Below, one piece after another: positions 59,451-62,352 of a stretch of 64,000 bases of DNA. Both the position numbers and the translations under genes were made by a program. The stretch's first letter is position 1; every line of letters starts with the position of its first letter. A model generated the notes under the pieces. It had not been told where the DNA came from. It did no database searches and worked only from the letters and a program-made list of their open reading frames with translations. Origin of the DNA: Methanobrevibacter sp. (lineage in GTDB: Archaea; Methanobacteriota; Methanobacteria; Methanobacteriales; Methanobacteriaceae); the NCBI RefSeq assembly GCF_017431965.1, contig NZ_JAFRKB010000025.1:1-64000 (forward strand). The letters are read 5' to 3'.

Positions 59451-59507
59451 GAAAAAAAAGAATTCTTAAAAAATAGTTGAGAGAAGAGTTTAAGCCTTAT
59501 CTTCTCT
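59451..59507 (-). terminator. Hairpin plus T-tracts at the CMD gene end
   Basis: AGAGAAGA (59480-59487) and TCTTCTCT (59500-59507) are perfect arms around a 12-base loop that holds the stop codon of the CMD gene; on the minus strand T-runs follow at 59468-59474 and 59451-59460. Confidence 0.6.
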
Positions 59508-59840
59508 TTCTTCTTCAATAGCTTCAGTAACACTATTTAATATTTGAAGTGATTTGGAAAATGCAGGCATACCTGAAGTTAATAAGACAACTCTCAAAAC
59601 ATCAACAATTTCCTCTTTAGTAATGCCCAATACTTCAATTGCACTTCTCATTTGCTTTTTGGTAGCTCTTGGATCTGCACGAGAAGCGGTAATGCCAATA
59701 GCTATTAATTTTTGAGTTTTATAATCCAAGATTTTGCCATCCCATACTGTTTCATTAATGTTGGATACTAACTCATACAAATCAGGATGTTCATCTTTTA
59801 ATTCCCGTATACCTTTACCGTAATATACATCACCTTTCAT
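59490..59840 (-). CDS. Carboxymuconolactone decarboxylase family protein
   Basis: 116 residues from ATG 59840 (MKGDVYYGKGIRELK) with GGAAGAG upstream; the TTG at 59855 lies in the site. The CMD fold is seen in NETVWDGKILDYKTQKLIAIGITASRADPRATKKQM. The CxxC of AhpD-type peroxidase enzymes is absent, so it is not a redox AhpD. Role unknown. Confidence 0.88.
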   Translation of the reverse strand: MKGDVYYGKGIRELKDEHPDLYELVSNINETVWDGKILDYKTQKLIAIGITASRADPRATKKQMRSAIEVLGITKEEIVDVLRVVLLTSGMPAFSKSLQILNSVTEAIEEEREDKA

Positions 59841-60000
59841 ACTCTTCCTCTCCAAATAATTTTATTAGTTAATTATTATTTTTAATTTCAAATTATATAT
59901 AATTAGGCTATTTAAAAAACTACCTTTTATTCATAATTTTAATGTTTCTTGATTATCATCTTTAAAAATTAATTAAACCTGAATTCATGAAAAAATATTG

Positions 60001-60026
60001 AAAAGTGAATAATTTAAATTATTCAC
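60001..60026 (-). terminator. Palindrome after the tannase-like gene
   Basis: A perfect 22-base palindrome at 60005-60026 (arms GTGAATAATTT and AAATTATTCAC) lies six bases after the stop on the minus strand, followed by TTTTC and a further T6 run. Probably the terminator. Confidence 0.6.
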
Positions 60027-60031
60027 CCATT

Positions 60032-61831
60032 TTAGTTTAAACAGTCATTAACCCAATTGATGAAATTGCTGGTGGAATCACCAGTTCTTTCAGCTTGAGT
60101 GTGTCCTTGACCCCAAACTGTTGAAAACTCAACATTATCATTGCCGACTTTATTTAAAACAGCCAAATATAAGTTTACATCGACACACTGGGAAATGTCT
60201 CCCTGTTCAATACCAGTGTTTATTCTCCAGTGATTAGCCACATCTGAGCTTCCTGCACCATCATAATAGTCACATAGGTAATACATTGGATTGTACATGT
60301 TCACACGTGTTTCCATGCTGGTATTTAAGCTATCTGTTGCGGCCAAGTCATTTTTATATTCCTCAGCATAACTGCTTGAGTAATCACCATATTTGGAGTA
60401 TTTTTCACTGTTGTTGTTGAGCAAATCGCTTAGTGTCTTGTCGAAATGTGATGAACTGTTTGCATCAAGACCGAACAATCCGTTTTCAGCTTGAGAACGA
60501 TTCAAATCATCGAAAGCAGGTACTGATTTAGATGGATTTTTGCAATGTTTGACGAATGCTTCCAGACTGGTAATTTTGGCGGTATTTGTATTTGCATCAT
60601 ATTCAATCCAGGTATCGTTTCCATTTAATGAATCAATGTATTCTTTAGCGGTTTGATAAGTTGCTGAGGAGCCTGAATCACTGCTTTCGGTTGGCATTTC
60701 ACCTCCCATATCTCCTGATGGCACCTCACCCGATGGTGCATCTCCACTTGGCATTTCTCCGCTAGGTGTTCCTCCAGACGGCATGGTCCCCATAGCATTG
60801 GAGCTTGGAGTGTATGGGAATGTTGTATCATTCAGGAAATTGTTCAATGACTCTTCAGTGACGCTTAACATGTAATCATAGTAGCTGCCGGATGTGTAAA
60901 CCCCATTGTCACTTTCCTCAAGTGTCAATGTTTTGCCGTTTGGATCTTTTAGGCCTAATGCGTTAATGTAGGCGGCATATTCTGCTGCCAAATCATTACT
61001 TAAGGCACCTGTGAATGAGTTTGAATTTCTCACATATTGTCCCATATTCCATTCATATGCGCTATCTGCAGTATCTAAATTTGTTATTGGACACCAGCAC
61101 ATCGCACCAGCAATAGCATTTGATAAAACTTTTCCATCTTTGTCAACCATTGCAGCACCAATGTTTTCTAAATATGGATTATATAATTCGCTGTTTCCTG
61201 AAGCGCCCATTATTGCAGATTGTGCTCCTCCTCCACTATGGCCAAAAGTAAATATTTTCTCAATGTTTCCGGGTAAAACATCTCCGTTAAATCTGTAGTA
61301 AGTCACTGCAGATTTCAAGTCAACTACACCATCAGGTGCTTCTGCATTGTCTCTTCCCATACAACCAGCATTTAAATAGATAAAACCAGCATCAGTGTAA
61401 TTTTTGACTTCACCTGCATTGTAACTAGTTGGTGCTTTGCATGCAGAATAACCTGGAGTATTTACTGGCATTACTATAGGTGCGGAATTAGAGGTATAAT
61501 TTCCAACTTTAGCATTTTCATTTATTTTACAACTGTAAGTTCCATTGGAATTTTTACTGCCTTCAAAGTATTTTCCAGGAACGTAGATCCCACAAGATTC
61601 ATATGAAGTATCTTTAGGATTCATACAGTATACAAGTCCAATTTGATAATATATGTCATTTGTTTCGTCATATTGCCAATTATTCATGTCAACTGAAAGA
61701 TTATTTGTTAATGCGCTTGCATTATATGATGGTCCTTCGCCTGTTGGAGTCGAGTTACCTGTTAGGAAAAATACTCCCACAATAGATATTAGAATTATTA
61801 TGGCAATTATAATTAAATGTAACTTTTTCAT
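60032..61831 (-). CDS. Secreted tannase-like alpha/beta hydrolase
   Basis: 599 residues. An N-terminal membrane segment (about 4-23) acts as a signal or anchor. The catalytic domain has the nucleophile elbow FGHSGGGAQ (Ser199), the cysteine-flanked text NAGCMGRDNAEAPDG, AGAMCWCPITNLDTA, and a late GQGHTQAERTG with the catalytic His. This is the pattern of the bacterial subtype A tannase/feruloyl-esterase group, which cleaves ester bonds of plant phenolics. Near residues 345-395 sits a low-complexity insert of Pro-Ser-Gly-x-x units. AGGTGAT precedes the ATG. It could be acquired from gut Firmicutes; substrate unproven. Confidence 0.8.
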   Translation of the reverse strand: MKKLHLIIIAIIILISIVGVFFLTGNSTPTGEGPSYNASALTNNLSVDMNNWQYDETNDIYYQIGLVYCMNPKDTSYESCGIYVPGKYFEGSKNSNGTYSCKINENAKVGNYTSNSAPIVMPVNTPGYSACKAPTSYNAGEVKNYTDAGFIYLNAGCMGRDNAEAPDGVVDLKSAVTYYRFNGDVLPGNIEKIFTFGHSGGGAQSAIMGASGNSELYNPYLENIGAAMVDKDGKVLSNAIAGAMCWCPITNLDTADSAYEWNMGQYVRNSNSFTGALSNDLAAEYAAYINALGLKDPNGKTLTLEESDNGVYTSGSYYDYMLSVTEESLNNFLNDTTFPYTPSSNAMGTMPSGGTPSGEMPSGDAPSGEVPSGDMGGEMPTESSDSGSSATYQTAKEYIDSLNGNDTWIEYDANTNTAKITSLEAFVKHCKNPSKSVPAFDDLNRSQAENGLFGLDANSSSHFDKTLSDLLNNNSEKYSKYGDYSSSYAEEYKNDLAATDSLNTSMETRVNMYNPMYYLCDYYDGAGSSDVANHWRINTGIEQGDISQCVDVNLYLAVLNKVGNDNVEFSTVWGQGHTQAERTGDSTSNFINWVNDCLN

Positions 61832-62352
61832 AACATCACCTATTAATTTTATATTAATAACTCGGAAGTGATATTTAAAATTTTTTATATTATACTGTCA
61901 GTTTTGCAAAATTGGAATGGGAAACAGACTTTGATTATGAAACATTAAATAACAATTTAATTAATAGTTTGGAATAATTTGCAAAAATTATATTTGCATT
62001 TTGTACTTGAAATAGATAAGTATCTGAACTTTTTTATAAGTTTTATACGAATGAAAATCTTTAATTATTATAATTTCAAAAAAAGTAGTGTAGAGAGACC
62101 ATAAGTATGACAACTATCACATGCCCTTTCATAAAATAACCTCAATTAATTTAATTAATACTATTTTTCATTTTTAAATTATATATAAATAGCTATTTTT
62201 AATTGATTCAACATCATTCAAGGATTTTTTTTATATTGCTTTAGTTCACTTCATAATTTATTTTTTGAAAAATGAAATTAATGTCAACTATGGTTAAATC
62301 AGTAAAACATATCCCCCATATCAATATTAGAAAGATTAAAAAAGCCGAATTA
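61832..62352. other. Intergenic region, AT-rich, with one tiny candidate ORF
   Basis: 521 bases between two leftward genes. I see no full gene. Two weak items are described separately: an 18-codon ORF with good start signals (62076-62132, minus) and a 27-codon open stretch at 61894-61977 (plus) that has no start and may be chance. A TATA-like CTATTTATATATAA (about 62181-62194, minus) lies upstream of the tiny ORF. Confidence 0.5.
62076..62132 (-). CDS. Candidate 18-aa hydrophobic peptide or gene remnant
   Basis: ATG 62132 follows GAGGTT (62143-62138) by five bases, and a TATA-like element lies about 50 bases upstream. The product MKGHVIVVILMVSLHYFF is hydrophobic. It could be a real micropeptide or the stump of a flavodoxin-like protein, whose first strand often reads MKxxVIVV. 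No other support. Confidence 0.25.
   Translation of the reverse strand: MKGHVIVVILMVSLHYFF

What the first reader, a model, noticed from the sequence alone, without database searches (positions are those of the whole stretch)
60032..61831. Tannase-like secreted hydrolase in a methanogen
The Ser-His hydrolase has the cysteine-framed motifs of bacterial subtype A tannases and an export signal. Methanogens are not known to use plant phenolics, but rumen or gut species could release methoxylated or phenolic esters, or neutralise tannins that inhibit them. A Pro-Ser-Gly-x-x insert (about 345-395), rare in archaeal proteins but common in secreted proteins of Firmicutes, supports transfer.
Basis: partly seen in the sequence, partly recalled or inferred. 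Interest (0 to 1): 0.6.

Follow-up and report, generated by a model that had tools for sequence, protein, structure and literature searches.

The report
Borrowed tannase in a gut methanogen
A methane-making gut archaeon carries an exported enzyme, acquired from bacteria, that very probably cuts gallic-acid esters of plant tannins; such an enzyme was already reported in a related rumen methanogen in 2016, so this is a further branch of a known kind rather than a new discovery.

Summary
The ORF at 60032-61831 (-) is real: 599 aa, with an N-terminal membrane segment, on a bona fide archaeal contig. It scores 851 bits against NCBI's curated subtype A tannase model (cut-off 550), is 53% identical to the Staphylococcus lugdunensis homologue and folds like solved bacterial tannases. 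It keeps Ser199/Gln543/His577 and the gallate-binding Lys435/Glu449/Asp545; Gln in place of the catalytic Asp is the published hallmark of subtype A. The 'CS-D-HC' pattern is a fungal trait, absent here and not expected. The Pro-Ser-Gly insert is a disordered linker shared by most of the family, bacteria included. Trees put all Methanobacteriaceae tannases in one clade beside Bacillota (transfer supported). The window gene lies in a cysteine-rich lineage that has moved between methanogen genera, in an accessory slot beside conserved genes. Tannase in Methanobrevibacter, with the same transfer and tolerance hypothesis, was published in 2016 for M. millerae SM9 (59% identical protein). Methanol salvage is unlikely as a general role: 25 of 29 carriers, this genome included, lack mtaB. 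Verdict: a sound call, largely anticipated in print; the new part is the lineage structure and spread. Enzyme activity remains untested.

The parts
60032..61831 (-). Subtype A tannase gene (599 aa, stop included in coordinates)
   Evidence: ORF; NF041555 851 bits
61766..61822 (-). N-terminal membrane helix, residues 4-22 (export signal or anchor; no lipobox)
   Evidence: sequence; helix in model; lipobox scan
61235..61237 (-). Catalytic Ser199 in G-H-S-G-G
   Evidence: 99% conserved, invariant in the 54-row set
60203..60205 (-). Gln543, at the position of the catalytic Asp of subtype B
   Evidence: invariant; role from PMC8958541 (Gln577 of CbTan1)
60101..60103 (-). Catalytic His577
   Evidence: 99% conserved; invariant in the 54-row set
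60527..60529 (-). Lys435, predicted gallate-binding residue
   Evidence: 97% conserved; aligned to the residues named in PMC8958541
60485..60487 (-). Glu449, predicted gallate-binding residue
   Evidence: 99% conserved
60197..60199 (-). Asp545, predicted gallate-binding residue, possibly doubling as the triad acid
   Evidence: 98% conserved
60668..60799 (-). Disordered Pro-Ser-Gly-rich linker, residues 345-388
   Evidence: pLDDT under 50; present in most of the family
59490..59855 (-). Flank: carboxymuconolactone-decarboxylase-family gene, conserved across the genus (a neighbour, not part of the enzyme)

Best explanation
The gene encodes an exported subtype A tannase (tannin acyl hydrolase). 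Outside the membrane, Ser199, activated by His577, attacks the galloyl ester carbonyl; Gln543 (with Asp545 perhaps helping) stands where other alpha/beta-hydrolases have the acid. Lys435, Glu449 and Asp545 hold the three hydroxyls of the galloyl ring. Gallic acid and a sugar or alcohol are released. The most likely benefit is local detoxification of hydrolysable tannins, which inhibit methanogens, not feeding. The gene entered Methanobacteriaceae from a Bacillota donor, split into several lineages, and the window's lineage has since moved between methanogen genera. Shown by computation: family, residues, fold, phylogeny, genomic setting. Inferred: activity, substrate, export and benefit.
For: NF041555 851 bits against a cut-off of 550, covering residues 42-595. 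All six active-site and gallate residues kept. Model pLDDT 88, pTM 0.87; the 14 best PDB matches are all bacterial tannases (E 1e-28 to 1e-31), the next is 2.6e-7. 53% identity to the S. lugdunensis protein L074, a species whose TanA is a characterised tannase (listed in PMC8958541). Tree: one Methanobacteriaceae clade, sister to Erysipelotrichaceae, within bacteria; all archaea as one clade rejected, p-AU 5e-5. Crossing of genera: g1 rows of the lineage as one clade rejected, p-AU 8e-7. Archaeal contig: thermosome, archaeal pheT; the flanking block recurs in other Methanobrevibacter that lack the gene, mostly 80-97% identical. Published precedent PMC4987999. Against feeding: 25 of 29 tannase-bearing genomes lack mtaB.
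Against: No archaeal tannase has been shown to be active in the papers found. Some methanogen paralogues have changed pocket residues (L030 E449Q and D545N; L024 D545H; L025 and L031 K435R; L045 H198L and K435R), so the substrate may have drifted in parts of the clade. Tolerance is inferred only from diet and known inhibition by tannins. Export by the N-terminal helix is predicted, not shown.
Confidence: 0.78

Rival explanations
1. It is a tannase-family esterase whose main substrate in methanogens is another phenolic ester (e.g. protocatechuates, galloyl-catechins or plant cell-wall esters), with tannin hydrolysis incidental.
For: Esterase pockets drift easily; a few methanogen paralogues have altered gallate-binding residues. 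Subtype A TanALp also cleaves protocatechuates (PMC8958541).
Against: The window protein keeps all three gallate-binding residues; characterised C. butyricum tannases, including subtype A CbTan1, did not act on methyl ferulate (PMC8958541).
Confidence: 0.15
2. It serves nutrition: methanol freed from methyl esters, or the released phenolics or sugars, feed the methanogen.
For: Some tannases hydrolyse methyl gallate (PMC8958541); both tannase-bearing genomes of g12 (the genus that holds the Methanosphaera hit) carry mtaB.
Against: mtaB is absent from the window's genome and from 25 of 29 tannase-bearing genomes; it is present in 4 of 29 carriers against 27 of 110 non-carriers, so there is no positive association.
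Confidence: 0.05
3. The contig or gene is bacterial contamination in a metagenome bin.
For: The genome is 8.34% contaminated, and its two other tannase copies (C14, C41) are 99.95-100% identical to a contig of another species.
Against: The window contig has archaeal core genes on it and conserved Methanobrevibacter flanks directly beside the gene. The finished genome G039, whose length equals M. millerae SM9, has a homologue.
Confidence: 0.01

Closest known systems
Predicted tannase sm9_1028 of Methanobrevibacter millerae SM9 (Kelly et al. 2016, PMC4987999); here L004 of G039, a 2,543,538-base single contig, the published SM9 length
   Same: Same family, same active-site residues, N-terminal export signal, methanogen host, same transfer hypothesis
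   Different: 58.7% identical; belongs to another methanogen lineage, without Cys80, Cys131 and Cys549
Subtype A tannases TanALp (L. plantarum), TanA (S. lugdunensis), CbTan1 (C. butyricum)
   Same: About 600 aa, Ser-Gln-His, Lys/Glu/Asp gallate site, insert-rich, exported
   Different: Bacterial; window protein about 50-55% identical to members from these genera; it has no lipobox, which about half of the bacterial members show
Subtype B tannases with solved structures (4J0C/4J0H, 6YQ4, 7Q6Y)
   Same: Same fold and gallate-binding residues
   Different: Shorter, catalytic Asp present; window scores 228.7 bits against a cut-off of 300 for subtype B
Fungal tannases / feruloyl esterases (PF07519, CS-D-HC motif)
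   Same: Alpha/beta-hydrolases acting on galloyl or phenolic esters
   Different: No PF07519 match, no CS-D-HC, only a distant fold match to MHETase (E about 1e-5; that MHETase belongs with PF07519 is own knowledge)

Membership tests
Bacterial subtype A tannase | Scores above the curated NF041555 cut-off over nearly full length | tested here: met
   851 against 550 bits, residues 42-595
Bacterial subtype A tannase | Gln in place of the catalytic Asp, with Ser in GxSxG and His | tested here: met
   S199, Q543, H577; criterion from PMC8958541
Bacterial subtype A tannase | Gallate-binding Lys, Glu, Asp | tested here: met
   K435, E449, D545
Bacterial subtype A tannase | About 600 residues with signal peptide | tested here: met
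   599 aa; hydrophobic helix 4-22. Cleavage not tested
Bacterial subtype A tannase | Releases gallic acid from galloyl esters | not testable with these tools
   needs an enzyme assay
Bacterial subtype B tannase | Catalytic Asp and NF041556 cut-off of 300 bits | tested here: not met
   Gln543; 228.7 bits
Fungal-type tannase/feruloyl esterase (PF07519) | PF07519 match and CS-D-HC motif | tested here: not met
   No match in the Pfam scan nor in the own genome (whose controls were silent too); His198 before Ser, Thr578 after His

The most novel reading that the evidence does not exclude
A cysteine-rich tannase lineage (Cys80, Cys131, Cys549) arose inside gut Methanobacteriaceae after one acquisition from Bacillota and now circulates among Methanobrevibacter-type genera and Methanosphaera as a mobile tannin-tolerance trait, making some methanogens resistant to tannin-based methane mitigation.
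Probability: 0.35. Interest if true: 0.5.

Novelty: new member of a known kind. Interest (0 to 1): 0.25.

Why it matters
Tannins are fed to ruminants to lower methane. If part of the methanogen community carries exported tannases, and the gene moves between genera, tannin additives (above all hydrolysable ones) could select for resistant methanogens. The idea was in print for one species in 2016. What is added here is that about a fifth of the Methanobacteriaceae genomes held (29 of 139) carry one, in three of 17 genera, with transfer between genera, so the hypothesis can be tested on matched carriers and non-carriers.

Tried and rejected
PF07519 (fungal tannase) search of the own genome: nothing, and its controls were silent too. 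CS-D-HC pattern: absent, and not expected in this family. Disulfide pairing could not be read because no model coordinates are exposed. Methanol salvage: tested through mtaB and not supported. A conserved operon partner: none found; only one close relative (G071) shares the downstream flank, elsewhere the gene sits in other surroundings. Contamination: rejected for the window copy, likely for C14 and C41. The volcano rabbit paper (PMC8378336) reports bacterial, not archaeal, tannases.

Full report
Observation. The ORF at 60032-61831 on the minus strand is intact: ATG start, 599 codons. It begins MKKLHLIIIAIIILISIVGVFFLTG, a positively charged start and a hydrophobic helix (residues 4-22 in the model). 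It has GHSGGG at 197-202, GQGHT at 574-578 and a Pro-Ser-Gly-rich stretch at about 343-390. The contig is archaeal: a thermosome subunit, archaeal-type PheT and proS family I lie on it.

What family. NCBIfam's curated 'subtype A tannase' equivalog NF041555 matches with 851 bits (cut-off 550, E 5.8e-256, residues 42-595). The subtype B model gives 228.7 bits against a cut-off of 300. Pfam shows only BD-FAE, a wider alpha/beta-hydrolase group. By sequence, the only solved relatives with significant scores are bacterial tannases (one of them is deposited as an alpha/beta hydrolase). The AlphaFold model (pLDDT 88.4, pTM 0.87) finds the F. nucleatum, C. butyricum and L. plantarum tannases first (E 1e-28 to 1e-31, TM-score by target 0.75-0.81). 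The next kind of protein is at 2.6e-7.

Active site. The subtype criteria are taken from the C. butyricum tannase paper (PMC8958541): subtype A has about 600 residues, a signal peptide and no acid in the triad; CbTan1 has Ser216, His611 and Gln577, with Asp579, Lys469 and Glu483 at the galloyl ring. The window protein has Ser199, His577, Gln543 and Asp545, Lys435, Glu449 in the corresponding positions, conserved in 97-100% of 95 family members. The same paper says it is unknown whether that Asp serves both binding and catalysis. Of the eleven cysteines only Cys247 is family-wide. Cys80 and Cys131 occur only in the lineage of the window gene; Cys520 is found in most methanogen rows and in few bacteria. 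Whether they pair was not tested.

Insert. Most members have a low-complexity linker at this place, of the PSG, PEG, PDG or PAG kind, including Lactobacillaceae, Staphylococcus, Paenibacillus and Chloroflexota; a few have almost none (L029, L030, L064). Paenibacillus pinistramenti L046 reads GGEMPSGEAPSGDLPSGDAPSGDMPSGEAPSGG, the window protein MPSGGTPSGEMPSGDAPSGEVPSGD. The model gives it pLDDT under 50. It is a flexible linker that came with the gene, not an archaeal novelty.

Phylogeny. A quick tree of 95 rows and a careful one of 65 rows (IQ-TREE, LG+C20) agree. All Methanobacteriaceae tannases form one clade (33 rows, 100/99), with an Erysipelotrichaceae protein as sister (99/95), inside bacterial diversity. 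One Methanomicrobiales protein (L056) lies elsewhere, beside Clostridium; forcing all archaea together is rejected (p-AU 5e-5), so there were at least two transfers into archaea if the L056 bin is clean. Within the methanogens, some lineages are confined to one genus: the SM9 type in g1, a second in g9, a divergent one in g12. The window gene lies in a further lineage of 18 rows (100/100) that holds 15 g1, 2 g9 and 1 g12 proteins. Two g9 genomes (G018, G033) and one g12 genome (G116) carry both a genus-confined copy and one of this lineage. Keeping its g1 rows together is rejected (p-AU 8e-7), and so is one clade for all g9 rows (p-AU 4e-106): the lineage has moved between genera. These groups were tested after the tree was seen, so the p-values lean low. 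The bacterial rows were found by peptide patterns of the window protein, so bacterial sampling is biased towards its near relatives and the exact donor is open. Genus names: g9 contains the MAG labelled M. olleyae SIG14, g12 the Methanosphaera MAG RGIG2546, g1 M. millerae SM9 (matching contig lengths and proteins; SM9 by its published length).

Distribution and setting. 29 of 139 Methanobacteriaceae genomes carry a copy, in 3 of 17 genera; a look across the phylum added none. Sample names of the methanogen loci include goat, roe deer and rumen material. Downstream of the gene is a conserved block (carboxymuconolactone decarboxylase family, CPBP protease, DUF6110, P-type ATPase); genomes without tannase have the same block with other genes at this place. 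This is an accessory slot, and it shows the window copy is not a bacterial contaminant. The two further tannase copies in the assembly, C14 and C41, are near-identical to each other and to a contig of another species (99.95-100%), so they probably are cross-bin contamination of this 8%-contaminated assembly.

How it works and what for. The enzyme would cleave galloyl esters outside the cell by the standard serine-esterase route; activity is inferred. Bacterial homologues act on gallotannins and galloyl glucose, not on methyl ferulate (PMC8958541). Methanogens have no known use for gallate (own knowledge). Methanol capture is disfavoured, since mtaB is missing here and in 25 of 29 carriers. Tannins inhibit Methanobrevibacter (references in PMC4987999), so tolerance is the most likely benefit.

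Known or new. Kelly et al. 2016 (PMC4987999) reported a tannase in M. millerae SM9 and ZA-10, 50% identical to TanALp, with signal peptide, conserved residues, and the hypothesis of transfer and tannin tolerance; a 2023 review repeats it (PMC10658910). The library searched holds only that review and one feeding study with both words 'tannase' and 'Methanosphaera', and I found nothing on the cross-genus lineage; absence in this library is not absence in print.

Noticed in passing
G000 contigs C14 and C41 (L116, L117): Two contigs of the window's assembly are copies of each other (99.95%) and of G048:C19, another species' contig: likely cross-bin contamination, so gene counts from this genome need care.
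   Followed up: partly
L030, L024, L025, L031, L045: Some methanogen tannase paralogues have changed gallate-pocket residues (L030: E449Q, D545N; L024: D545H; L025, L031, L045: K435R), suggesting drifted or failing copies beside intact ones.
   Followed up: no
L011 (G033:C4:56171-57853): The tannase frame of G033 has a TAG inside the stretch matched by the profile, near its N-terminus: perhaps a decaying copy or a shorter start.
   Followed up: no
L056 (uncultured Methanomicrobiales, lake sediment bin): A tannase in a sediment methanogen bin groups with Clostridium, apart from the gut methanogen clade: an independent transfer, or a binning error.
   Followed up: partly
window 59861-62300 and the same place in G043, G048, G049, G083, G057: Just upstream of the carboxymuconolactone-decarboxylase-family gene the content differs in every genome compared: a variable insertion spot beside conserved genes.
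   Followed up: partly
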